Shown: positions 1,491 to 51,337 of the stretch, in pieces
Layout of the letters: the number at the start of each line of letters is the position of its first letter
How positions within the stretch are numbered: position 1 is the first letter of the stretch
NCBI GenBank assembly: GCA_022768465.1
Contig: JALELZ010000026.1
Span: 1 to 64,000, forward strand
Source: Lachnospiraceae bacterium
GTDB taxonomy: Bacteria; Bacillota; Clostridia; Lachnospirales; Lachnospiraceae
Reading direction: 5' to 3'
DNA: 64,000 bases
The notes under the pieces: model-generated
Told to the model about the DNA's origin: nothing
The model's database searches: none
Seen by the model: only the letters and a program-made list of their open reading frames with translations
Translations under genes and position numbers: made by a program

Positions 1491-3611
1491 ATGAACTATA
1501 AAACAAATATCATCTGTGAATACGGATCTTATCGTAGCGTTGATCCAGAACATACTTTACCACAACTTGCCTGGAGGCTTGACACAAGCTTGCCAATACT
1601 TGGTGGGGAGATACTTGTTCGCGTAGAGTGCATAAATTTAAATTCCGCAAGCTTTAATCAAATCAAATTGGAATCAAACGATGAACCGTTCAAGGTAATT
1701 CAAAGAATTCAAAATATTGTTGCTACGAGGGGAAAGATGCACAATCCGGTAACCGGATCCGGAGGTACACTTTCGGGAATTGTAGAGCAGGTGGGATCGG
1801 AGCATCCGGATTTTGGAAAGACATTTGTGGGAGAGCGGATCTGTACGTTGTTTTCTCTGTCTACAACTCCTTTGATTATTGAAAGTGTAAAGAGTATCAA
1901 TATGAGGACGGGACAGTTGGACATAGAGGGGCACGCGATATTATTTCCAAGCAGTCTATATGCCAGAATTCCAGATTGGTGTCCTGCGAAGTTGTGCGTA
2001 TCTGCATTGGGGGATGCCGGATCCACATATGAGACATATCGCTTATGTAAGCCGGGCATGAATGTTCTGATTGTCGGAGCGTATGAAACTGTCGGCATGC
2101 TGTGTCTGGTAGCAGCAAGGAATAAGATAGGGAAAAGTGGTCACATTGTTGCTGTATTAACAGGACAAAAGAAGCTTTCAAGTGTGAGAGGCCTTGAAAT
2201 GGCTGATGAAATTTTGATTGAAGAACTGGAAGATCCGTTCAGGGCTTATAAAGATGCAAAAGAAAAATTGAATAACATGAGTATAGATCTAACTATTGAT
2301 TGTACTTGCATTCAAGGATCGGAAATGTTTGGCGTACTAATGACAAAGCAAAATGGATCGGTTTATTATACCAGTCCTGCCGCAAATTATTCTGCCGCTG
2401 CACTTGGAACAGAAGGTGTAGGAAAAGAATTAGATCTTCAATTGTATCGGGGATATATTAATGGCCATGTCGCATTTTGTATTAAGTTGCTTGAGGAAAA
2501 CCCGAAGCTTATTCAAGTGCTGCGCGAAAGGTATGAGGATCAAAGTCAGGTATTCCATTTAAATGCTGTTCAACAGGGGGAACTTGCAGAAATCCCAGGA
2601 ATAGAATTAGTGATTAAAGACACCGGAATGAAAAATATTCTGGAACTGGCAAAACGTATTGCGATTTATGATACTTCTGTCATCATATATGGAGAGACTG
2701 GAACGGGAAAAGAGCTTGTAGCCGACATTGTAAATCGGTATAGTCATAGATTTGGTAAGCCTTATCTAAAGATAAACTGTTCAGCGATTCCTGAAAACTT
2801 AATTGAAGCAGAATTATTCGGATATGAATCAGGCAGTTTTACAGGAGCACTTAAAACTGGTCATAAAGGTTTTTTTGAGATTGCAGATAACGGAACCTTA
2901 TTTTTAGATGAAATAGGTGAGATTCCTATTGCCGAGCAGGCTAAGCTTTTACGAGTTCTACAATCAAGGGAAATCATAAGAGTAGGAGGAACTAAACCAA
3001 TTCCGGTAGACGTAAGAATTATATGTGCAACTAATCGTAATCTCTGGAAAATGGTTGAAGAAGGCAGTTTCAGAGAAGACCTGTACTATAGATTAAATGT
3101 AATAGATATTATGGTTCCGGCGCTTAGAAACAGAAAAGAAAGTATACCGGACCTGGCGGACATGTTTCTTAGGCGGTATAACGGTAAATTTGGGATGCAC
3201 AAAAGATTTTCTGATCACGCATTAGAGATGCTTTCTGAGTACAATTGGCCAGGAAATGTGCGTGAGATGGAAAATATGATTCAAAGACTTCTGTTGGCAA
3301 CTGATGAGAATGTTATCACACAACAGATGCTTGTCAGGGAATTTGGAAAGACAGGATATAAAAGTAAAGAAATACAGGAGAGGGGGATATGGAACCACGA
3401 TAATAAACAACAGGTTCATGAAGGAAATGAAAGAAATGGAAGACAAAAAAGGTTGATACCGGAAGAAGAATTCCGCGAAGCTGCATTGCATTGCTCTTCC
3501 ACCAGGGAATTGGCAACTGCTCTGGGTATCAGCCAGACCACGGCCTCAAGGAGATTGAAAACGCTTGGTATTGTCCTTAAAAATCCTTGGACTAACAAAA
3601 GAACCGAATAA
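1491..3611 (+). CDS. Sigma-54 enhancer-binding regulator with KDD-like sensor domain
   Basis: 706-residue transcription activator. Residues about 1-375 resemble L-erythro-3,5-diaminohexanoate dehydrogenase (lysine fermentation): CEYGSYRSVDPEH at the start, SASFNQIK, RGKMHNPVTGSGG, VDIEGHAILF-like DIEGHAILF. The nucleotide-binding glycine loop is altered (GAYETVG, 196-202), so it is probably a ligand sensor rather than an enzyme. Residues about 380-620 are a sigma-54 AAA+ domain: Walker A GETGTGKE (401-408), GSFTGA loop that contacts sigma-54 (448-453), Walker B LFLDEIGE (about 470). A C-terminal helix-turn-helix (RELATALGISQTTASRRLK, about 668-690) binds DNA. Start chosen at ATG 1491 because GGAGG lies 6 nt upstream. 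It sits directly before a -24/-12 promoter, the expected target. The ligand is unknown. Confidence 0.88.
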   Translation: MNYKTNIICEYGSYRSVDPEHTLPQLAWRLDTSLPILGGEILVRVECINLNSASFNQIKLESNDEPFKVIQRIQNIVATRGKMHNPVTGSGGTLSGIVEQVGSEHPDFGKTFVGERICTLFSLSTTPLIIESVKSINMRTGQLDIEGHAILFPSSLYARIPDWCPAKLCVSALGDAGSTYETYRLCKPGMNVLIVGAYETVGMLCLVAARNKIGKSGHIVAVLTGQKKLSSVRGLEMADEILIEELEDPFRAYKDAKEKLNNMSIDLTIDCTCIQGSEMFGVLMTKQNGSVYYTSPAANYSAAALGTEGVGKELDLQLYRGYINGHVAFCIKLLEENPKLIQVLRERYEDQSQVFHLNAVQQGELAEIPGIELVIKDTGMKNILELAKRIAIYDTSVIIYGETGTGKELVADIVNRYSHRFGKPYLKINCSAIPENLIEAELFGYESGSFTGALKTGHKGFFEIADNGTLFLDEIGEIPIAEQAKLLRVLQSREIIRVGGTKPIPVDVRIICATNRNLWKMVEEGSFREDLYYRLNVIDIMVPALRNRKESIPDLADMFLRRYNGKFGMHKRFSDHALEMLSEYNWPGNVREMENMIQRLLLATDENVITQQMLVREFGKTGYKSKEIQERGIWNHDNKQQVHEGNERNGRQKRLIPEEEFREAALHCSSTRELATALGISQTTASRRLKTLGIVLKNPWTNKRTE

Positions 3612-3625
3612 TACAGAAAAGCATA

Positions 3626-3660
3626 TGAGTCTATATAAAAACGGATTCGAATTAGACTCA
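3626..3660. promoter_or_regulatory. Inverted repeat, candidate upstream activating sequence
   Basis: TGAGTCTA (3626-3633) and TAGACTCA (3653-3660) are perfect 8-bp arms separated by 19 nt. They lie about 170-200 bp upstream of the -24/-12 promoter, a normal distance for an enhancer site of the adjacent activator. A second candidate is the direct repeat GTTAGAT at 3747-3753 and 3757-3763. Function is inferred from position only. Confidence 0.35.
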
Positions 3661-3705
3661 AAAACAACTCGGTTTACATGACTCAACTATTATAAGGTAA
3701 ATAAA

Positions 3706-3746
3706 AACAGCACCTTCTGAATGCATTCAGAAGATGCTGTTTTTTT
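3706..3746 (+). terminator. Rho-independent terminator after the regulator gene
   Basis: AACAGCACCTTCTGAA (3706 onward) pairs with TTCAGAAGATGCTGTT with a single G-T wobble, followed by a run of seven T from 3740. It separates the regulator transcript from the sigma-54-controlled operon. Confidence 0.85.
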
Positions 3747-3825
3747 GTTAGATAGTGTTAGATTTGTGAATCCAAGTTTAGCCTTAATGACAAAAATGAA
3801 GATAATTTGAATAGAACTTTGATTT

Positions 3826-3841
3826 TGGCACGATACATGCT
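3826..3841 (+). promoter_or_regulatory. Sigma-54 (-24/-12) promoter
   Basis: TGGCAC (3826-3831), five bases, then ATGCT (3837-3841). The invariant GG (3827-3828) and GC (3839-3840) are separated by exactly 10 nt as in the consensus TGGCAC-N5-TTGCW. Transcription would start near 3852, about 36 nt before the CoA-transferase ATG. The gene for a sigma-54 activator lies immediately upstream. Confidence 0.85.
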
Positions 3842-3887
3842 CATTAAAAGGTAGAGGCGTTACAAAACATACAGAAAGGAACAATTT

Positions 3888-5105
3888 ATGGGCGATACTT
3901 TTGTAAAATCAGAACTTAATGAGAAGCCTTTAACCGGGGTAGTTGTTTTGGACCTTAGTCAAGCATATGCTGGACCGTTCTGCACAATGCACATGGCCGA
4001 TCAGGGCGCAACCGTTATTAAGATTGAAGTGCCAGGAAGGGGCGACCAGTCTCGAACCTGGGAGCCGGTCAAGGAAGGGAAAAGCGCATATTTCAGTTAT
4101 ATTAATCGAAATAAGTATGGTCTCAGCCTTAACCTAAAAGCGGAAGATGGAAAAGAGATCTTTAAAAAACTTGTGAAAAAAGCTGATGTTGTTATTGAGA
4201 ACTTCCGTGTTGGAACTATGGATAAGCTTGGCCTTGGGTATGACGTGCTGAAAGAGACCAATCCTAGTATTATTTACGCACAAATTACCGGTTTCGGTCT
4301 AAATAACAGGTTAGCAATGCGCCCTTGTTATGACCCGATAGCACAGGCGATGGGCGGAATAATGAGCATCACAGGCTTTGACGGACAGCCTACAAAAATC
4401 GGGCCGGCAATCGCAGATAGTGTTTCTGGCACCTATATGTCGGCAGCAATTGCAATGGCGCTTTATCAGAGAGCAAAGACCGGAATGGGAAGATATATTG
4501 ACGTTTCAATGCTTGATACAATTTTCTCTCTCTTGGATAGTGCGGTCCCTGAGTATACCTACAAGGGAAATGTTTCTAAACCTAACGGCAATGATGATTT
4601 GTCTATTGCGCCATTTGGTTCCTTTGTGGCTAAGGACGGTCAATTCATGCTGGCTTGCGGTTCAGATAAATTCTTCAATAGCTTTTGCGAGCTGATGGGG
4701 AATCCTGCCCTGGCTGAAGATCCTCGTTTTTGTGAGAACTCAGGTCGTGTTCAGAACACACCGGAGCTGAAACCGATCATCAATGCTTGGACTTCGCAGC
4801 ATACATTGGATGAACTGGAGGAGATGATCGTCGGTGCCGGTATTCCGTTTGGCAGAATCCAGAATGTGAAGGATCTTTGTGAAATGGATGTGATCCGAGA
4901 GAGAAACATGCTTTGGGAAATAGACGATCCATTCCTGGGAGAAAAAATCATTGTACCAGGAACGCCAATCAAAATGCACGGCTGTGCGGATGCACCTCAA
5001 AGACCGGCTCCGATGATTGGTCAACATACATCTAAGATTCTTTCAGAAATGCTGGGTATGGGAGAAAAAGAACTGGAAGAACTTAGAAATAACGGAGTCA
5101 TTTGA
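3888..5105 (+). CDS. CaiB/BaiF family (class III) CoA transferase
   Basis: 405 residues, normal length for family III CoA transferases, cytosolic enzymes that move CoA between acyl groups. The N-terminal signature GVVVLDLSQAYAGPFCTM is followed by IKIEVPGRGD, the IENFRVG region and the block with the expected catalytic aspartate, CYDPIAQAMGG (Asp149). C-terminal G-Q-H and leucine-rich ending are typical. First gene behind the -24/-12 promoter, RBS GAAAGGAAC. With the thiolase downstream it probably activates an organic acid as its CoA ester for beta-ketothiolysis; the acid is not identifiable. Confidence 0.9.
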   Translation: MGDTFVKSELNEKPLTGVVVLDLSQAYAGPFCTMHMADQGATVIKIEVPGRGDQSRTWEPVKEGKSAYFSYINRNKYGLSLNLKAEDGKEIFKKLVKKADVVIENFRVGTMDKLGLGYDVLKETNPSIIYAQITGFGLNNRLAMRPCYDPIAQAMGGIMSITGFDGQPTKIGPAIADSVSGTYMSAAIAMALYQRAKTGMGRYIDVSMLDTIFSLLDSAVPEYTYKGNVSKPNGNDDLSIAPFGSFVAKDGQFMLACGSDKFFNSFCELMGNPALAEDPRFCENSGRVQNTPELKPIINAWTSQHTLDELEEMIVGAGIPFGRIQNVKDLCEMDVIRERNMLWEIDDPFLGEKIIVPGTPIKMHGCADAPQRPAPMIGQHTSKILSEMLGMGEKELEELRNNGVI

Positions 5106-11228: not shown

Positions 11229-12398
11229 TTAAAGAAAATCTGAGACTTTTATTTTTTCAATCTCAAGTCTTAAATCTTCAAGCTCTCTATGCCCATAAAC
11301 TGCATTAGTGACATCTTCAAATACATGTCCGAGCATACGCTTTTTATCGTTCTCTTTAACATTATATTTATCGCAGAGCATGGCAAAGGTGTGACGGGTG
11401 TCATGCGGTGTGTGGTAGGTCATGCCGTGAGCTGCACAATATTTCTTGATATCTTTTCGCAGTATTTGCGGAGTACCGATAAGTTTTTTGTCCCTGCGGA
11501 GGCGCTTTTTTACAAGCGGAATGATAGCGGAATGCATCGGCACGATCCGGACCTTACTTGTTTTAGTTTTCACGCCGCCTTCAAAATATGCTTCTTTGAC
11601 ATTTATTTTCGCTACACCATATTCGGAGACTCGGTGCCCGGAGAATATCATGATAAGCAGCATCTCAGCCGTAGGATCATCTTTATCCTTCCAAAGCTGT
11701 TTGATCTCATCGATTGAAAAAGGTACACCGTGCTCATCATCATCGGGCTTACGAATCGATACACGCTTAGAATAGTCCTTGTCGATATACTCCATGAGCT
11801 CCGCATAATTAAACACCTGCTTGATCAGTGTGACCATGAGCTCAAGCGATGAGTGCTTAAGCGGACAATCGTCTATGACCTTCTGCAGGTCAGCATAACG
11901 CAGATCCGCAATAAGCCTATCATGTAGAGGGCTTACATTCTTAAACGCTGCTTTTGTTGAATTAATGGTTGATACTGAATACTGCTTTTTAGACTTTTCA
12001 AATTTATCAATAAAGTATTCGTGATAGACTTCCGCGAAGGTCTTTTTGATTTCAGCTTCTTCTCCCGTGATACGCTGCGTGATAAGGGCATAGTTATTAA
12101 GCATGCCGCGTATAAGCTCTGACATGTTTTCAGCTGCTTCTTTCGGCTCTGAGCCTATATCAATATGATTCTCCATGCCAGGCGTGTACGTGCCCGCATT
12201 GTAGGCCGTAAGGATGGCAAATCCCTTATACCAACTGTCAACATAGCACAGCGGTTTCGGTCTGATCGGGCAGCCGTTAATGTCGAGCCCCTGGGACGTG
12301 GCCTGCACGCAATACGGATTCCTTCTGTTGCCTGGCAGCTTCCTTATGCTGCCAAAGCCTGCAGGCAGCTTCGGATATTTCTTTTTCTTTTGTGCCAT
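11229..12398 (-). CDS. int: Tyrosine-recombinase integrase
   Basis: 389 residues. N-terminal arm-binding and SAM-like core-binding domains, then a catalytic domain with all residues: Arg256 (SGHRVSE), Lys282, His332 and Arg335 (PHDTRH), His358 (LGH) and Tyr368 (AVYGH). It catalyses integration and excision at the adjacent att core. RBS AAAGGAGG precedes the ATG. Its 3' end touches attL, as in many temperate phages of Bacillota. Confidence 0.95.
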   Translation of the reverse strand: MAQKKKKYPKLPAGFGSIRKLPGNRRNPYCVQATSQGLDINGCPIRPKPLCYVDSWYKGFAILTAYNAGTYTPGMENHIDIGSEPKEAAENMSELIRGMLNNYALITQRITGEEAEIKKTFAEVYHEYFIDKFEKSKKQYSVSTINSTKAAFKNVSPLHDRLIADLRYADLQKVIDDCPLKHSSLELMVTLIKQVFNYAELMEYIDKDYSKRVSIRKPDDDEHGVPFSIDEIKQLWKDKDDPTAEMLLIMIFSGHRVSEYGVAKINVKEAYFEGGVKTKTSKVRIVPMHSAIIPLVKKRLRRDKKLIGTPQILRKDIKKYCAAHGMTYHTPHDTRHTFAMLCDKYNVKENDKKRMLGHVFEDVTNAVYGHRELEDLRLEIEKIKVSDFL

Positions 12399-14943: not shown

Positions 14944-15606
14944 TTACATCCGGATAAGCGATTGAAAAAACAGCGCCTTTCCTATGACGTATACTCCGTC
15001 AAGCTCATCATCACGGTATATAAGAGGTGCGTATTTGGGATTTTCCGCAATGAGCTGCAGTGTGCTTGTCTCCGGATAGAAGTAAACTCTTTTAAGCGTG
15101 ACCTCATCGCCTATTGCAACTACAGCTATCTCTCCGTTCTCGACATGGCTGCACTGCTTAACAAAAATAAGGTCGCCGTCATATATCCTGGCATTAATCA
15201 TCGAGTCACCTTTAGCGGTGAGACAGTAATCAGCATCTATATCTTCATCAGCTAAAACATAGCTGTCATGTTCTTCATTGGCAAATATGGGAGTACCGCA
15301 GGCGACAGTGCCGAGCATGGGAATAGGTTTTTTATGAACATCAGAGAGTCGGGTAAGACCGTAGTCCTCTGGAGTGCGTGAAGAACGATTATGAGCTTCA
15401 ATCAAATCCGACTTATTAATATTAAAATAATTAGCAAGAAGCTGAACCTTGCCCATTCTTGGAAGTGCAACGCCTTGGCACCATGTGTTAAAAGTCTGTG
15501 GCGATACGCCTATAGCATCAGCTATTTCCTTCTGACTCTTCTGTGATTGTGAAATATAATATCTAAGGTTCTTTACGAATATCTTTTTCTGATCTTGATC
15601 TGTCAT
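14944..15606 (-). CDS. S24/LexA-type phage repressor
   Basis: 220 residues. N-terminal helix-turn-helix (QKEIADAIGVSPQTFNTWCQG, about 25-45) and a C-terminal self-cleaving peptidase: scissile bond in VACGTP (Cys103-Gly104), Ser135 in KGDSMIN and Lys172 in VTLKRV. RecA-stimulated cleavage would release lysogeny after DNA damage. Start at ATG 15606, RBS GAGGTG; a GTG 9 nt upstream is less likely. Divergent from the cro-like gene across the operator region. Confidence 0.93.
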   Translation of the reverse strand: MTDQDQKKIFVKNLRYYISQSQKSQKEIADAIGVSPQTFNTWCQGVALPRMGKVQLLANYFNINKSDLIEAHNRSSRTPEDYGLTRLSDVHKKPIPMLGTVACGTPIFANEEHDSYVLADEDIDADYCLTAKGDSMINARIYDGDLIFVKQCSHVENGEIAVVAIGDEVTLKRVYFYPETSTLQLIAENPKYAPLIYRDDELDGVYVIGKALFFQSLIRM

Positions 15607-15702
15607 TTTAATCACCTCATAAGCAATAAAGAGTTGTATTTACATCATATAAGAAAAAATCAAAATTCACAACTAAAAATAAAAAATAATTTGATTTTAG
15701 TA

Positions 15703-22942: not shown

Positions 22943-23634
22943 TAGCACATTGTATGTTTGAGCAATCCGGAACGTTCAAGAATGAATTTAAGAAACTCGG
23001 CATAGAAGCTTACGATTATGACCTTCAGGATGAGTTCGGAGAGACGGATTACAAGGTTGATCTGTTTGATGAAATCAAGAAAGCCTACGAAGGTTGGGAA
23101 AGCATCTTTGACCGTGTGGGGGGGGAGGACATCATAATGGCATTCTTTCCTTGCACGAGGTTTGAAGCGCAAATTTCAATAAGCTTTAGGGGTGAGGCAA
23201 CTCAGCAAAAGAAATGGACTGACTTGCAAAAACTACAGTACTGCATGAAGCTTCACAGTGAATTGCACATGTTATACGAGCGGCTTTGTCAGCTTGTAGT
23301 AGTGGCGGAGCGTAAAGAGTTGAAGATGGTTATCGAAAATCCATACACCCAGCCACATTATCTGACAACTTATTGGTGCATTAAGCCTACGGTGATAGAT
23401 AAAAACAGAACCGACAACGGTGATTTTTTTAAAAAACCGACACAGTTCTTTTTTATCAATTTGCAACCGAGTCAGAATCTTGTTTTTGAGCCTTTAGAGT
23501 ACACAGAGACAAAGGTCATATCAAAGGTGGCAGGAACAGACAAAACTACAAGGCAAACAGAGCGCAGCATGATGCATCCGCAGTACGCAAGGAGATTTAT
23601 TAAGCAGTACATACTGCCGAGGGAGAACGTATGA
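22939..23634 (+). CDS. Putative class I (DNA cytosine) methyltransferase-like protein
   Basis: 231 residues. FEQSGTFKNEFKKLGIEAYDYD resembles SAM-binding motif I-II of C5-type DNA methylases, MAFFPCTRFE corresponds to the PC motif IV, and IENPYTQPHYL to motif VI (ENP). Length is short and the Pro-Cys-Gln is altered, so activity is uncertain. A run of eight G (23118-23125) lies in frame at residues about 60-63. Confidence 0.55.
   Translation: MIAHCMFEQSGTFKNEFKKLGIEAYDYDLQDEFGETDYKVDLFDEIKKAYEGWESIFDRVGGEDIIMAFFPCTRFEAQISISFRGEATQQKKWTDLQKLQYCMKLHSELHMLYERLCQLVVVAERKELKMVIENPYTQPHYLTTYWCIKPTVIDKNRTDNGDFFKKPTQFFFINLQPSQNLVFEPLEYTETKVISKVAGTDKTTRQTERSMMHPQYARRFIKQYILPRENV
23118..23125 (+). repeat. 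G8 homopolymer in the methyltransferase-like gene
   Basis: Eight consecutive G, in the reading frame (codons GTG GGG GGG GAG). A change of one base would truncate the protein near residue 65-75. Long G runs are rare in this window; the others are at the start of tail-fibre genes. Confidence 0.95.
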
Positions 23635-29451: not shown

Positions 29452-30672
29452 GCGCGTCAGTCTTCAGGCAATGATAGGCGGCGGTTATGCGGACTTTTGG
29501 ACAAATAAAAGCCGTTATAGAGTGGTGAAGGGTTCAAGAGGCTCAAAGAAGTCAAAGACTGCCGCCCTTAATCGTATAACACGCATCGTGCAATATCCTG
29601 AAAGCAATTATCTTTGTGTAAGGAGATACGCAAACACTTTGAGAAACTCAATATACAGTGATACTAAATGGGCAATAAGTCGATTGGGCTTAGATGCCTT
29701 TTTTATTGCACTGTATCGCCGATGGAAATCATATATATCCCAACCGGGCAAAAGATACTTTTCAGAGGTTTGGATGAAGGTACAAAAGTTACATCAATAT
29801 CAGTTTCAAAGGGCGTTCTTAATTTCGTTGATATAGAAGAGGCATACGAGATTGATGAAGATGATTTTGACAAGCTCGATATGTCTATTCGTGGAGAAAT
29901 GCCGGAAGGCTATTTTAAGCAAATCACGCTCTTATTTAATCCATGGAGCGCTAATAGTTGGCTTAAAAAGCGTTTTTTTGATGATCCTGACGAAAACACT
30001 TTTATAAAAACTACAACATACGAGTGCAATGAGTGGCTCGATGATGCTGACCGCCGTGTATTTGAGCTTATGCGTATCAAGAACCCACGCAGATACCAAA
30101 TAGAGGGTTTAGGCGAATGGGGTATTGCTGAAGGTCTTATTTATGAAAATTGGGTAGTGGAAAACTTTGACGTTGAAGCGCTGAGAAAAACAACAACGGC
30201 AGCATTTGGATTAGACTTCGGTTTTACGGACCCAACAGCCTTTATAGCAATGCTTGTAGATAAGCAAAACTACACGCTGTACATCTTTGATGAATGGTAT
30301 AAGACGGGCGTAACTAACAAAGATATTGCACAGTATCTGATTCAAGCGGGCTATGCAGGGCAAAGAATTATATGCGATTCTGCAGAGCCTAAATCAATAC
30401 AAGAGCTTAGAGATCACGGCATAAATCATGCAGAAGGTTCGCGCAAGGGCAAAGACTCCGTTAATCACGGTATTCAGCTGATACAAGGCTACAAGATAGT
30501 TATAATGCCGCACTGCAGGGAATTTATAAAAGAAATATCTAATTACTGTTGGGCAAAAGATAAAGCAGGTAAAGCAACGGATAAACCCGAACATGAGTTT
30601 TCACACAGCATGGATGCTATGCGTTACGGCTTATCAAAGACGTTGGTAGGAGATGCATACAGCTTTGACTAA
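29441..30672 (+). CDS. terL: Terminase large subunit, frameshifted in this sequence
   Basis: PBSX-type packaging ATPase/nuclease, about 410 residues when joined. Frame 1 covers residues 1-88 with Walker A GSRGSKKSKT (31-40). The second frame continues from YCTVSPMEIIY: Walker B VDIEEA (about 130-135), nuclease acids in GLDFGFTDP (Asp259), CDSAEP (Asp313) and SMDAMRY (Asp392). The junction is a T6 run (29699-29704): adding one T gives a continuous protein. Either a real 1-nt loss, which would disable packaging, or a base-calling error. Frame 1 alone stops at 29836. Confidence 0.9.
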
Positions 30673-46501: not shown

Positions 46502-47557
46502 ATGACATATGATGAAATAATGGAGCGCATGTTGTCAAATGTGCCTGATAGCTATGATAAGAGGGAGGGATCTATCATCTGGGATGCTTTAAGCCCCGCA
46601 GCGATAGAGCTTAACAACTTGTACATGGAATTTGAGTCCATGCTAAATGAATCATACGGAGATACTGCGACAAGAGAATATCTTATAAGGATATGCGCGG
46701 AACGTGGCGTAAAGCCTTATAGCGCCTCACAAACGGTCGTTAAAGGCGTGTTCACTCCACCAAGCTTAGACATTCCAATCGGTTCTCGTTTTAACAATGC
46801 TGTGGCTTCCTATGTTGTTACAGAGAAGATATCAGACGGAGTATATAAGCTAAAGTGCGAAACGGCGGGAACTATCGGAAATCAATATACTGGAACAATA
46901 ATCCCAATCGGTTACATAGAAGGGCTTGAGACAGCTAAAATCGAAAGCATTCTTATATATGGAGAAGATGTTGAGGAAACGGAACATTTACGCACACGAT
47001 ATATGAACAGCTTTGACGAGAGAAGCTTTTCAGGCAACAGACACGACTATATAGAGAAGTGTGTGGCAATATCCGGTGTCGGAGCATGCAAGGTAGAGGC
47101 TGTATGGAACGGTGGCGGAACGGTCCGACTTACGATATTGGATTCTGAATATGGAGTAGCTTCAGAGGAACTTATTAATAAGGTTAAGTCTGAATTTGAT
47201 CCTAACAGTGACGGTATGGGCGACGGATTAGCGCCTATTGGCCATATAGTGACTGTCAGAAGCGCTGAGGGCATCAATATCAATATCACTACAAATATTA
47301 CATTTGAAAGTGACTATTCATGGGACACTCACAGGACTCAGATAGAAAACGCTGTTAAGGCTTATCTTTTAAGCATCTGTGAAGGCTGGCAAGCGAACGA
47401 CAATATCATCGTAAGAGTATCTCAGATAGAAGCTAAGATACTTGATGTTGACGGCGTTATTGATATCGCAAATACAAAAATAAACGGCAGCACCGAGAAT
47501 TTAGCCCTTACAGAGTTTCAGGTGCCTGTATTCGGGGGTGTAAGCGGTGAAGCGTGA
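46502..47557 (+). CDS. Baseplate J-like (gp47) wedge protein (XkdT-like)
   Basis: 351 residues: DEIMERMLSNVPDSYDKREG, IWDALSPAAIELNNLY, RICAERGVKPYSASQTVV, RIGDGLAPIGH-type GMGDGLAPIGHIVTV. Forms the baseplate wedges that trigger contraction. Confidence 0.93.
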   Translation: MTYDEIMERMLSNVPDSYDKREGSIIWDALSPAAIELNNLYMEFESMLNESYGDTATREYLIRICAERGVKPYSASQTVVKGVFTPPSLDIPIGSRFNNAVASYVVTEKISDGVYKLKCETAGTIGNQYTGTIIPIGYIEGLETAKIESILIYGEDVEETEHLRTRYMNSFDERSFSGNRHDYIEKCVAISGVGACKVEAVWNGGGTVRLTILDSEYGVASEELINKVKSEFDPNSDGMGDGLAPIGHIVTVRSAEGININITTNITFESDYSWDTHRTQIENAVKAYLLSICEGWQANDNIIVRVSQIEAKILDVDGVIDIANTKINGSTENLALTEFQVPVFGGVSGEA

Positions 47558-48098
47558 TATTGATATCTCAAAGTACTTGCCACCGTTCATGACGGAATAT
47601 AAAGAGCTCGCAAGAGTCCTTGAGACAGAAAATAAGGAATTGCAGAGCCTTGAAAATAAGCATTGGAAAGCTATCGACAACCGTTTCATTTCATCTTGCG
47701 ATGAAGAAGGTATTTCAAGATATGAAAAGCTCTTAAGTATCACTCCGCTCAGTAATGATACTTTGGATGATAGAAAGGCAAGAGCTATTGCAAAATGGAA
47801 CAGAGTACTTCCGTATAATTATGAATACCTTAGGAAGCAGCTTGAAATGATGTGCGGTATCGATGGGTTCAGTATTGATTTTAGTCATATAAACGAATAT
47901 CTGATGACGGTAAAGATAGCGCTCACGTCAAAGAATGCTTTTAATGATGCCGTGAAAATGGTTGAGGAAATCGTTCCTGTAAATCTCTTAACTACGGTAA
48001 TGATTATGTATAATCAGCATATGACAATTAAGCATTTGAAACATTCAGAGCTTAAGACATTCACACATGATCAGATCAGAAATGAACCAAATATTTAA
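47547..48098 (+). CDS. DUF2313 baseplate protein (YmfQ/XkdU-like)
   Basis: 183 residues: ISKYLPPFMTEYKELARVLE, RFISSCDEEGISRYEKLL, DDRKARAIAKWNRVLPYNYE. GTG start, overlapping gene J by 11 nt. Confidence 0.88.
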   Translation: MKRDIDISKYLPPFMTEYKELARVLETENKELQSLENKHWKAIDNRFISSCDEEGISRYEKLLSITPLSNDTLDDRKARAIAKWNRVLPYNYEYLRKQLEMMCGIDGFSIDFSHINEYLMTVKIALTSKNAFNDAVKMVEEIVPVNLLTTVMIMYNQHMTIKHLKHSELKTFTHDQIRNEPNI

Positions 48099-48129: not shown

Positions 48130-48513
48130 TTGAAATTTACAGAGTTTTTAAAACTTAAAAAGCCCGAACAGACAGATTTCTATAATGTCGATGATTTTAA
48201 TGAAAATGCAGACGCTATAGACGAAGAACTGTCAAAGATGAATCGAAAACTGACGCTTACCTTTACGGCTGCCGGGTGGAGCGATACGGCACCTTTCACA
48301 CAGTCGGTCACAGCTGCGGAAGTGACAGCAACAGACAGACCCGAAAGATGGTTTGACTATCCTGCATCCGCCGGAGAGGATTTTGATTATGATAAATACT
48401 CGGAAGAAACGAGCTATGTGACGTATTGCGAGACAGGCGCAGGAACGATAAAAGCGGTGTGTAAAAAGGATAAGCCAACAATGGACATCGTCATCGTGTT
48501 CAAAGGCTATTGA
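48130..48513 (+). CDS. Tail fibre base protein, 127 aa
   Basis: KFTEFLKLKKPEQTDFYNVD and DFNENADAIDEEL at the N-terminus is the standard opening of Gram-positive myovirus tail-fibre proteins. Short, so it probably forms the fibre base carrying the following variable proteins. TTG start. Confidence 0.75.
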   Translation: MKFTEFLKLKKPEQTDFYNVDDFNENADAIDEELSKMNRKLTLTFTAAGWSDTAPFTQSVTAAEVTATDRPERWFDYPASAGEDFDYDKYSEETSYVTYCETGAGTIKAVCKKDKPTMDIVIVFKGY

Positions 48514-48526
48514 TGGAGGTGGACAA

Positions 48527-49143
48527 ATGTCAAAATGCTTATTCCAACCTGGGGGGGGGGACTCAGCAAGTCCAAACTTAAGGCTGTAACAGCTAAAGCC
48601 ACAGATGTGCTTAGTGGCAAGGTCATAGTAGATAAAGACGGCAATCCTTTAACGGGAACAATAGAGTCAAAGGACGGTCAGACTATCACACCGACCACAG
48701 CGGCGCAGACTGTAGCATGCAACGGTAAATACATGACGGGGGATATAAAAGTAAACGGTGACAGCAACCTTGTAGCAAGGAATATTCTTAGCGGTAAGAC
48801 AATATTCGGTGTGGCAGGGACAGCCCAAAAATTTGGACATACTAAGTTCGCAATAGCCGCGAGTTCAACATCAAAAGTATATGATTATTATCCAAACAAA
48901 ACTAGAAGCTTTTATCCAGCCACAGTCAATTGTGGTTTCAATCCGATTATATATGGTTATGTGTGCTATACAGCAACGTCATATAATGGAATTGTAAACA
49001 ACTATGGTACTTTCAGAACTGCAGTAGGCAGCACACAATATGATGTTCTAATAAACGGAAAATTAGTTAGTGGAACATCATTATATTTACCATGCGGAAC
49101 AACAGGAAAAACATTAGATGGCGGCGCGGCAGGGTATTATTAA
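48527..49143 (+). CDS. Variable tail-fibre/adhesin protein A, out of frame through a G10 tract
   Basis: RBS GGAGGTGG, ATG 48527, reads MSKCLFQPGGG and then the G10 tract (48551-48560) shifts it into a stop at 48587. With 8 or 11 G it would continue as LSKSKLKAVTAKATDVLSGK... to 49143, as in the tract-free paralogue at 49733. Conserved N-terminal anchor (GKVIVDKDGNPLTGTIES, GKYMTGDIKVNG) and a unique C-terminal tip (aromatic/Gly-rich) fit a receptor-binding protein. In-frame ATG 48535 lacks an RBS. Confidence 0.8.
48551..48560 (+). repeat. G10 homopolymer, candidate contingency tract
   Basis: Ten consecutive G, 24 nt after the start codon of a tail-fibre gene, in a genome of moderate GC. Slippage during replication would switch the frame. 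Confidence 0.95.
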
Positions 49144-49154
49144 TGAGGTGAAGT

Positions 49155-49358
49155 ATGTTTGAAATAAGTGGAAAAGGTATATTTGTGGGTGAAGCTGATG
49201 TTGCATTAGGCATGGCATTTGCTGAAAAGATAAGAAATGAAGGCTTTGCGGTAAACATTACTAAACAGCATAACCTTTTCAAAACCGACGATATCATAGA
49301 CAAAAAAGCCTATGTTGTAGAGTTCAGCTCTGCAAGCAATAACGTGTTTTTCAATTGA
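49155..49358 (+). CDS. Small protein, 67 aa, unknown
   Basis: RBS GAGGTG. Begins MFEISGKGIFVGEADVALGM; EKIRNEGFAVNITKQHNLF. Between fibre genes; may be a fibre accessory or chaperone. Not recognised. Confidence 0.6.
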   Translation: MFEISGKGIFVGEADVALGMAFAEKIRNEGFAVNITKQHNLFKTDDIIDKKAYVVEFSSASNNVFFN

Positions 49359-49477
49359 TTAGATTTTGAAAGTAACGTATAATCAGACATGAGCTACCAA
49401 TAACGGTAGGCGGTTAGTTCTCTGAATAATAACATAAGCGCTTTACGGCAACTATGTTTATTAGAAGGAGGCGGCTT

Positions 49478-49564
49478 ATGGTTACGTTCAGCGATTTAAT
49501 AGCGTTTACGCTTATGATTGCTACAATCATTAAGATTGTTTATGACATAACTAAAAACCACTAA
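49478..49564 (+). CDS. Holin-like type I toxin peptide, 28 aa
   Basis: RBS GAAGGAGGCGG. Begins MVTFSDLIAFTLMIATIIKI, followed by VYDITKNH: a single transmembrane helix with a short charged tail, like putative holin-like toxins and TxpA/BsrG/Fst peptides. Followed by a terminator. Confidence 0.75.
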   Translation: MVTFSDLIAFTLMIATIIKIVYDITKNH

Positions 49565-49593
49565 TCGCCCGCTCAAAGATGATTAGTGGTTTT
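49553..49593 (+). terminator. Terminator of the type I toxin mRNA
   Basis: AAACCACTAATC pairs with GATTAGTGGTTT, then TTT. The stem begins inside the toxin stop codon region. The pairing also could serve an antisense transcript. Confidence 0.8.
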
Positions 49594-49732
49594 TATAAAT
49601 CATTAAAATTTTGAGCTAACCGTCTATCGGTAGCTCTTTATATGCTGATTATAAGAGAATGAGGCAAATTTGTCAAATGCAGGGAGTGGCGAAAGCTGCT
49701 TCTTTTTTGTATTAAAAGAAAGGAGCTGAGAT

Positions 49733-50302
49733 ATGGCAAAATGCTTATTCAGCGGCAGCGGAGGGCTTCCGAAGTCACTGCTTGAACAGATCACAGCGGG
49801 TGCAGGCGATGTCCTTGCAGGAAAGGTCATAGTAGGTGCTGACGGTGAGCCTTTGACGGGTACGATCGAGGTTAAAGCCGGTCAGACCGTAACACCTACA
49901 CCGAACACACAAACGATAGCGTGCAAGGGCAAATACATGACGGGAGATATCGTCATAAACGGCGCGAATATTTTTAAAGTTGCGAGCGGGACTGTTAATA
50001 GCAGTGGCGGCACGTCCGACATTCAATTTAAAAATAACAGCACAAACCAAACAGCATTTAGCCAAAAATTCACAATACATCTATCAGGTTTCAAAGCGGT
50101 ATTTGCTGTAGCCTGGCATAACTTAAGTGCAGGGATGACAGGATTTTCCACAGGGTTAAGCAATTGTTGCATCGGGGATAATTATGCAACATATACGGTT
50201 ACAAATAACGGTGTTTTTTCTAATAGCCAAATTGTTTTACCTGCATATAAGACAACAAAGACAGGTACTCATTCTATCCAATATTGGGTATATGGATATT
50301 AA
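49733..50302 (+). CDS. Variable tail-fibre/adhesin protein B (no G tract)
   Basis: 189 residues. Begins MAKCLFSGSGGLPKSLLEQI, then the shared anchor GKVIVGADGEPLTGTIEVKA and GKYMTGDIVINGAN, and its own C-terminal tip. In frame because AGCGGCAGCGGAGGG replaces the poly-G. RBS AAAGGAGC. Serves as the reference for the two interrupted copies. Confidence 0.8.
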   Translation: MAKCLFSGSGGLPKSLLEQITAGAGDVLAGKVIVGADGEPLTGTIEVKAGQTVTPTPNTQTIACKGKYMTGDIVINGANIFKVASGTVNSSGGTSDIQFKNNSTNQTAFSQKFTIHLSGFKAVFAVAWHNLSAGMTGFSTGLSNCCIGDNYATYTVTNNGVFSNSQIVLPAYKTTKTGTHSIQYWVYGY

Positions 50303-50330
50303 GCATTCAACATAAAGAAAGGAAAGCGAA

Positions 50331-50696
50331 ATGAAAGCATTAGTTATATACGACAGCACAGGCATTATTTATAACATCATCTATGGCCGTGAGGATATTC
50401 CGGAAGGTCTCGAAAGCTCAGCGATAATATTGGAAATACCCGCAGATATGAGGCTTCTCTCAATCGATGTTACGGACCCTAAGAACCCTAAGCCTATATT
50501 TGATGTTCAGCCAGGAACAGCGGTTGCAATGCTCAAAGAGGAAATGGCATCAAATAAGGCTGACACTGATGCGTCTATCAGTATGCTCACTGAGACCATG
50601 GACAGCCTTCTTACCGACTTCATCCCTTCGATTTTAGCTGGGTCTGAAGAGACCGAGACACCGCCAGCAGAAAATGTACAGACAACAGATAAGTGA
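50331..50696 (+). CDS. Phage tail-region protein, 121 aa
   Basis: Begins MKALVIYDSTGIIYNIIYGR; DVQPGTAVAMLKEEMASNKA and a helical C-terminus. A common companion of fibre genes in Clostridia phages; perhaps fibre assembly or XkdX-like. Function unknown. Confidence 0.65.
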   Translation: MKALVIYDSTGIIYNIIYGREDIPEGLESSAIILEIPADMRLLSIDVTDPKNPKPIFDVQPGTAVAMLKEEMASNKADTDASISMLTETMDSLLTDFIPSILAGSEETETPPAENVQTTDK

Positions 50697-50705
50697 GGTA
50701 TTTAA

Positions 50706-51337
50706 ATGGCAAAGTGTCTATTCCAACCTGGGGGGGACTCAGCAAGGCTAAGCTAAAAGCGGTCACTGCAGGCGCAGGAGACGTCTTAAAAGGCAAAGTT
50801 ATAGTTGATGCTAATGGTAATCCACTAACCGGAGTCATCGAGTCAGGTGAAGGTCAGACTATCACACCGACCACAGCGGCACAGACCGTGTCATGCAACG
50901 GTAAGTACATGACGGGTGACATTAAGATAAACGGAGATAGTAACCTTGTGGCCGCAAATATAGTAAGTGGAAAATCCATATTCGGTGTGGCGGGTAACGC
51001 AAGAAAATATGGATTTATTAATAAGTGGGCAAACACCGGTTCAACAGCAGGATTTCGAGATGTTGCGGATAAAGCAACATATAATAAGTATTATGTAGAA
51101 GCAGCGAACATAGGCTTTACGCCGGAGTCATGCTATGCGATATATAATACAGGAAATGGAACCGTCCGCGTTACCGGATATATTTATAATCCATATACTT
51201 ACTTCGGAACATATGTCGTAGCAGGTGATCGTGATTACAAAGCAACATCTTATGCCGGTTCGTTTTCATCCAGTCTATTGCGAATCCCGGTATATACGTC
51301 AGGTGGTAATAATATTTTAGCCGCCGGATATTACTAA
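50706..51337 (+). CDS. Variable tail-fibre/adhesin protein C, out of frame through a G7 tract
   Basis: RBS GAGGT, ATG 50706, reads MAKCLFQPGG then the G7 tract (50730-50736) leads to a stop about 12 codons later. With 8 G it continues LSKAKLKAVTAGAGDVLKGK... to 51337. The anchor shares near-identical DNA with copy A (for example GGTCAGACTATCACACCGAC); the C-terminal tip is different. An in-frame GTG at 50693 lies inside the Shine-Dalgarno and is not a good start. Confidence 0.8.
50730..50736 (+). repeat. G7 homopolymer, candidate contingency tract
   Basis: Seven consecutive G at the same position relative to the start codon as the G10 tract of copy A. Eight G would restore the frame. Confidence 0.95.

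What the first reader, a model, noticed from the sequence alone, without database searches (positions are those of the whole stretch)
48527..51337. Paired tail-fibre genes with G10 and G7 tracts: candidate phase-variable receptor binding
Three paralogous fibre genes share an N-terminal anchor and differ in their C-terminal tips. Two carry a poly-G run exactly 24 nt after the start codon (G10 at 48551, G7 at 50730); the third has a non-repetitive Gly/Ser segment of the length that 8 G would encode. As sequenced both G-tract genes are out of frame and would give peptides of about 20 residues or fewer; G8 (or G11) restores each. Slipped-strand changes during replication would give a phage population expressing different fibre tips, a host-range bet-hedging system without a reverse transcriptase or invertase.
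Basis: partly seen in the sequence, partly recalled or inferred. Interest (0 to 1): 0.88.

Follow-up and report, generated by a model that had tools for sequence, protein, structure and literature searches.

The report
Prophage fibre genes with G-run switches
A temperate phage carries three related tail-fibre genes, two of them put out of frame by runs of G of the kind that other phages use as random on/off switches, so virions from one lysogen may differ in their fibres; switching of these two genes was not observed directly.

Summary
Genes A (ATG 48527) and C (ATG 50706) carry G10 and G7 after eight codons and are out of frame as sequenced (20 and 16 residues); paralogue B (49733-50302) is intact without a tract. 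They follow the baseplate genes of an apparently complete temperate, contractile-tailed prophage. Beyond the tracts A and C are open and under purifying selection against each other (dN 0.14-0.15, dS 1.3-2.4). The tract falls on a conserved glycine motif of the fibre anchor; 30 distinct homologues with that motif use mixed Gly codons (longest G run 5), so the pure tracts are peculiar to this prophage. No reverse transcriptase or serine recombinase was found in the genome. A second prophage of the same bacterial family has the same plan with unrelated anchors (one fibre gene without tract, two with), and one of its tracts differs in length between two otherwise identical sources, leaving the gene open in one and broken in the other. 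Best explanation: slipped-strand phase variation of two fibres beside a constant one. It works like the published polyG switch of Campylobacter Fletchervirus phages, here in temperate phages of another host group. Length variation of the window's own tracts could not be tested (no reads, no close relative).

The parts
48130..48513 (+). Small gene just before the fibres; relatives have a homologue directly before their fibre gene
   Evidence: 30% identity, E 1e-8, to the gene before the MGKIWMPGGGGG-type fibre in L030
48527..49143 (+). Fibre gene A, out of frame at its tract as sequenced
   Evidence: Start conserved with B and C; anchor found by the model of the relatives at E 6.9e-15
48551..48560 (+). 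G10 tract of gene A
49733..50302 (+). Fibre gene B, intact, no tract
   Evidence: 189-residue ORF; model of the relatives E 1.2e-13
50706..51337 (+). Fibre gene C, out of frame at its tract as sequenced
   Evidence: Model of the relatives E 9.2e-13; 199 open codons after the tract
50730..50736 (+). G7 tract of gene C
46502..47557 (+). Baseplate wedge gene (phrog_6)
   Evidence: 47.4% identical to the phiC2 tail protein
47547..48098 (+). Tail protein gene (phrog_521)
11229..12398 (-). Integrase, showing that the phage is temperate
   Evidence: PF00589 E 1.7e-6; phrog_1 E 8.5e-33

Best explanation
A, B and C are paralogous fibre (or fibre-tip) genes of a temperate contractile-tailed prophage. 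B is constant. A and C are contingency genes: a pure G tract on the glycine motif behind the start codon gains and loses bases by slipped-strand mispairing when the DNA is copied. In most copies translation from the conserved start then ends after about 20 codons; in a minority the whole fibre is made. Virions from one lysogen would carry B alone, or B with A and/or C. Shown: the tracts, the loss of frame, the open and selected downstream sequence, the tract-free paralogue, no reverse transcriptase or serine recombinase, and a length-variable fibre tract in a second prophage with the same plan. Inferred: that these two tracts vary, that the products are on the virion, that their tips bind receptors.
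For: Frames and tracts; dN 0.14-0.15 against dS 1.3-2.4 over 90 anchor codons; 193 and 199 open codons after the tracts; the glycine motif of 30 distinct homologues has no G run above 5, and GGG is 38 of 466 Gly codons in 25 intact prophage genes, so the pure tracts are unusual; same M-[SA]-K-C-L-F start in all three genes. Second prophage: in L107 one fibre gene without tract and two with; around the second tract L190 is identical (150 of 150 and 400 of 400 bases) but the tract differs by one in length, and the gene is open for 451 residues in L107 and stops after 54 in L190. No PF00078 or PF00239 match.
Against: No reads, and no close relative to compare tract lengths. 0 of 30 homologues of this anchor has such a tract. 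Both A and C are off, so no expressed state of either was seen. G7 is at the low end of tracts called hypermutable (7-11 G in a passage of PMC9311878). Fibre function rests on place and homology: no Pfam or PHROG family matches, and no fold could be predicted.
Confidence: 0.68

Rival explanations
1. Assembly or sequencing error in the G runs; both genes are really in frame and always made.
For: Long G runs are error-prone, and the draft's sequencing method is unknown (my general knowledge).
Against: 25 prophage genes used for codon counts have no internal stop, and a T7 at 29973 (residue 102 of the ORF) lies in frame inside the terminase match. The wider control is weak: 11 of 22 other homopolymers of 7 or more lie in ORFs of 100 aa or more that run through them, but the two tracts pass that same test. 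G7 is a modest run, yet it is out of frame too.
Confidence: 0.11
2. Recent irreversible loss: both genes were switched off by slippage and are now dead in this lineage.
For: Both are off; B may suffice.
Against: No other lesion in either gene; long purifying selection on both. Pairwise dN/dS cannot exclude a very recent loss.
Confidence: 0.09
3. The DNA is constant; polymerase slippage or ribosomal frameshifting at the G run makes some full-length fibre.
For: Both tracts leave the same frame offset; runs of G can let polymerases and ribosomes slip (recalled).
Against: RNA around the tracts is not unusually stable (z 0.18 and 0.59); the tract of C is short for it (my judgement).
Confidence: 0.07
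4. Translation starts at a second codon (ATG 48535 in A, GTG 50714 in C) that is in frame with the anchor as sequenced, so both genes are on, perhaps weakly.
For: These codons exist and open the whole anchor frame.
Against: In A the codon is 15 nt from GGAGG, against 7 nt for the first ATG. The codons arise from the Lys-Cys codons. C has only GTG. B uses the other frame, and three of the four A/C differences before the tract are synonymous in it.
Confidence: 0.05

Closest known systems
PolyG phase-variable receptor-binding proteins of Campylobacter Fletchervirus phages (Sorensen et al. 2021, Cell Rep 35:109214; paper not seen, known from passages in PMC11959909, PMC10579305 and PMC8766974)
   Same: G tract inside a phage host-recognition gene; no dedicated enzyme; a mixed phage population is expected
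   Different: Those phages are Campylobacter myoviruses of the genus Fletchervirus; this is a prophage with integrase and repressor in a low-GC genome of another group, with a paired set of paralogues beside a constant one and the tract on a conserved glycine motif
Invertible fibre segments: Gin of Mu, Cin of P1, Rin shufflon of bifidobacterial prophages (passages in PMC6109161)
   Same: Alternative fibre tips behind a shared N-terminal part, in temperate phages
   Different: Those need a recombinase and inverted sites; no serine recombinase in the genome, and only four inverted pairs of 15-18 nt here, none framing the tips
Diversity-generating retroelement of Bordetella phage (reference seen; otherwise recalled)
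   Same: Diversifies a phage tip
   Different: Needs a reverse transcriptase; none in the genome
MGKIWMPGGGGG-type fibre genes of related phages in IMG/VR and in genomes of the bacterial family
   Same: Anchor with glycine motif; in L030 also the same kind of preceding gene
   Different: Mixed glycine codons, frame open through the motif, no tract
Fibre pair of L107/L190
   Same: One fibre gene without tract and two paralogues with G tracts in the anchor, in the tail module of a prophage of the same bacterial family; one tract differs in length between sources
   Different: Different anchor family; tract some 45 codons into the gene, not eight

Membership tests
PolyG phase-variable phage receptor-binding protein | Homopolymeric G tract of 7 or more inside the reading frame | tested here: met
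   G10 and G7
PolyG phase-variable phage receptor-binding protein | Change of tract length moves the gene in and out of frame | tested here: met
   By the reading frames alone
PolyG phase-variable phage receptor-binding protein | Tract length varies within a population or between isolates | not testable with these tools
   No reads and no close relative for this prophage; seen once in the parallel fibre gene of L107/L190
PolyG phase-variable phage receptor-binding protein | The product is a virion protein that binds a host receptor | not testable with these tools
   Position after the baseplate genes and homology only
PolyG phase-variable phage receptor-binding protein | Belongs to the Fletchervirus phages in which it was described | tested here: not met
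   Prophage with integrase and S24-type repressor; phiC2-like baseplate protein
Diversity-generating retroelement | Reverse transcriptase | tested here: not met
   PF00078: no match in the own genome; control rings in 3 of 14 genomes
Invertase-driven fibre switch | Serine recombinase, or a recombinase next to the fibres | tested here: not met
   PF00239: no match; control rings in 10 of 14. The tyrosine recombinase of the prophage is its integrase, some 36 kb away
MGKIWMPGGGGG-type fibre anchor | Start, glycine motif and ITAGAGDVL-GKVIVD-type anchor | tested here: met
   Model A3 finds A, B and C at E 6.9e-15, 1.2e-13 and 9.2e-13
Programmed -1 ribosomal frameshifting | Stimulating RNA structure behind the slippery run | tested here: not met
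   z 0.18 and 0.59 over 106 nt; pseudoknots not examined

The most novel reading that the evidence does not exclude
PolyG contingency switching is a general habit of phages well outside Campylobacter that arose more than once: in paired fibre genes beside a constant fibre (this prophage; L107/L190 with an unrelated anchor), in a virion-like gene (L175) and in phage DNA methyltransferases (L174, L177, L181). In this prophage the second start codon could add a weak third level of expression.
Probability: 0.4. Interest if true: 0.76.

Novelty: new variant of a known kind. Interest (0 to 1): 0.62.

Why it matters
A 2025 review calls the use of phase variation by Fletchervirus phages an exceptional case (PMC11959909, passage). 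An enzyme-free switch in fibres of temperate phages of another host group would let a prophage hedge its host recognition while it sits in the chromosome. It would also mean that consensus assemblies and gene callers score such genes as broken. It can be tested with accurate reads that may already exist.

Tried and rejected
Close relatives of the anchor or prophage: IMG/VR by protein and profile and by N-terminal DNA pattern (0 stretches); GTDB contigs (none, four distant); 60 relatives, 24 of them of the same genus (none in the genus, one hit in another family); family genomes; phage records (one weak hit, baseplate only). All are too distant to compare tract lengths.

Tract in homologues: 0 of 30. 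Six IMG/VR stretches match a WMP-plus-G7 pattern; by eye none carries the anchor. Of the homologues, L036 is broken some 45 codons in, by a frame change against L032 that is not at the motif.

I had compared only the first tract; the second differs in length. The odds of the best explanation went from 0.6 to 0.68 for this, the rivals down, the novel case from 0.3 to 0.4 and the interest from 0.56 to 0.62.

Full report
What is there. The window lies in a 1.86-Mb, 33-contig draft genome. A prophage runs from about an integrase (11229-12398, -) and an S24-type repressor (14944-15615, -) through terminase, portal, major head protein, tail sheath, tape measure and baseplate genes to about 53.5 kb: a temperate phage with a contractile tail. 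Its baseplate protein is 47.4% identical to that of Clostridioides phage phiC2.

The fibre genes. After the baseplate wedge gene (46502-47557), a tail protein gene (47547-48098) and a small gene (48130-48513) come three paralogues: A (ATG 48527), B (49733-50302) and C (ATG 50706). The small gene is homologous (30%, E 1e-8) to the gene just before the MGKIWMPGGGGG-type fibre gene in L030. No Pfam or PHROG family matches the fibres, so 'tail fibre' rests on place and homology.

The tracts. A has G10 at 48551-48560 and C has G7 at 50730-50736, each after eight codons; the sequenced frames from the two ATGs end after 20 and 16 residues. After the tracts come 193 and 199 open codons. One other G run of the window reaches 7 (G8 at 23118, inside an open ORF). 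A second-order Markov model expects 0.275 G/C runs of 7 or more per 64 kb and gave none of 10 or more in 200 runs; the shuffle test is less extreme (1 of 100). The genome has seven runs of G8 or longer, three of them G10; 7 of 25 genomes of the genus hold a G10.

Which frame is real. A, B and C all encode M-[SA]-K-C-L-F from their ATG. Of the four A/C differences before the tract three are synonymous in that frame, and B is intact in it. Second start codons open the sequenced frame (ATG 48535, GTG 50714), but in A the codon is 15 nt from GGAGG against 7 for the first ATG. A weak third expression state is not excluded.

Selection. Over 90 anchor codons A and C differ at 74 of 270 bases, 50 of them at third positions; dN 0.144 and dS 2.42 (NG86), or 0.151 and 1.29 (YN00). 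The downstream frames were kept by selection long after the genes parted. This speaks against old pseudogenes, not against a very recent loss.

The tract is peculiar to this prophage. Outside the own genome the model of the relatives' N-termini finds 33 distinct rows; 30 have the glycine motif and 3 do not (L042, L044, L165). In the 30 the longest G run within 40 nt of the motif is 3 to 5, and the frame runs through the motif in each; one, L036, is broken further on, not at the motif. In these motifs GGG is 18 of 137 Gly codons; in 25 intact prophage genes it is 38 of 466. Third positions are identical between A and C in the four codons before and the three after the tract, against 40 of 90 overall. 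Another run of nine lies further on, so local gene conversion is as good a reason as selection on the DNA.

Artefact. The 25 genes have no internal stop, and a T7 lies in frame inside the terminase match. Of 22 other homopolymers of 7 or more 11 lie in ORFs of 100 aa or more that run through them and 11 do not; but the two tracts themselves pass this test, because their open frame reaches upstream of the tract, so the control says little. Only reads can settle it.

Other switches. No reverse transcriptase (PF00078) and no serine recombinase (PF00239) in the genome; five tyrosine recombinases, of which the one in the prophage is the integrase. Inverted repeats of the region are four pairs of 15-18 nt, three of them imperfect, none framing the tips. 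RNA around the tracts is not unusually stable.

A second prophage with the same plan. L107 (6478 bases of genome G064, same bacterial family) was found through the tail protein next to the fibres. It has a fibre gene without tract (3503-5008, -) followed by two with G tracts in the anchor (1890-3485 and 513-1868, -). The latter two share 60 of 80 N-terminal residues and only about a quarter of the distal part; the first resembles them distally (31%); both tract genes match a tail-fibre PHROG (phrog_4492). L190, a 36.6-kb IMG/VR contig, holds the same pair. The first tract is of equal length in both (148 of 150 bases before and 400 of 400 after identical), the gene open for 531 residues in both. 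The second differs by one in length with 150 of 150 and 400 of 400 flanking bases identical: the gene is open for 451 residues in L107 and stops after 54 in L190. This is what a switching fibre gene would look like, though an error in one assembly cannot be excluded. The anchor is unrelated to that of A, B and C as far as seen (different sequence, tract some 45 codons in). Among 348 family genomes searched with it 4 had a match.

Further parallels. A pattern scan of IMG/VR (GGAGG, ATG, x, Lys, 9-21 nt, G8 or longer) gave 14 stretches. Three hold one gene with G11, G8 and G13 (L174, L177, L181); I call it a DNA methyltransferase from its DPPY motif, recalled, no family search. L177 and L181 are identical over 300 nt before the start and at 681 of 684 positions after the tract; L174 at 229 of 300 and 668 of 684; the gene is open from the start in one of the three. 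In L175 a G10 29 nt after an ATG separates the start from a 490-residue open frame related to a virion protein (phrog_23208, E 7.6e-7). The other ten were not followed up; several stop soon in all frames.

What is known. Passages in PMC11959909, PMC10579305 and PMC8766974 describe Fletchervirus phages whose receptor-binding proteins vary through polyG tracts (Sorensen et al. 2021, not seen). A passage in PMC9311878 credits Pseudomonas and Bordetella phages with polyG tracts, citing Ceyssens 2009 and Sorensen 2021; I think this is a slip of citation but could not check. The present case works like Fletchervirus by anatomy and is not filed as a member. Nine searches listed no report of such a switch in a temperate phage, judged by titles and abstract openings; several lists were cut (20 of 246), and the library lacks most subscription journals.

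Verdict. Phase variation of two fibres beside a constant one, 0.68; assembly error 0.11; recent loss 0.09; slippage in expression 0.07; second start codons 0.05.

Noticed in passing
L174, L177, L181 (IMG/VR contigs 3300006143_000149, 3300027374_000264, 3300006204_000352): Methyltransferase-like phage gene with G11, G8 and G13 28 nt after its ATG; L177 and L181 are otherwise nearly identical; open from the start in one of the three. Candidate phase-variable phage DNA methyltransferase.
   Followed up: partly
L107:513-5008 (-) and L190:2001-4207: Second prophage with one tract-free and two tract-bearing fibre genes; the second tract differs in length between the two sources and breaks the gene in one.
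   Followed up: partly
L175:9849-11362: 161-kb phage contig: G10 29 nt after an ATG, then a 490-residue open frame out of register, related to a virion protein; no near match among phage records.
   Followed up: partly
L028:2574 and L030:4859: Between a fibre gene and the next gene, G7 in one contig and G9 in the other with 60 of 60 and 40 of 40 flanking bases identical; the run lies where the ribosome-binding site of the next gene would be.
   Followed up: no
G000:C22:105952-105961 and G000:C29:117350-117359 (own genome): Two more G10 runs, both between genes: one in T10G10 between two regulator-like ORFs, one before an ORF with a lipoprotein-like start. Possible contingency loci of the host.
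   Followed up: no
L201 (G005:C5:25514) and L197 (G002:C24:55): In two genomes of the genus: G10 directly after a lipoprotein-like signal sequence, out of register with the ORF behind it; G11 near a contig end in an ORF that I take, by recall, for a polysaccharide pyruvyltransferase.
   Followed up: no
window 49478-49595: 28-residue peptide weakly like Hol-Tox (PF16935, E 0.0087, below the cut-off) between fibres A and B, with a perfect 15-nt inverted repeat at its end: possible type I toxin unit.
   Followed up: no
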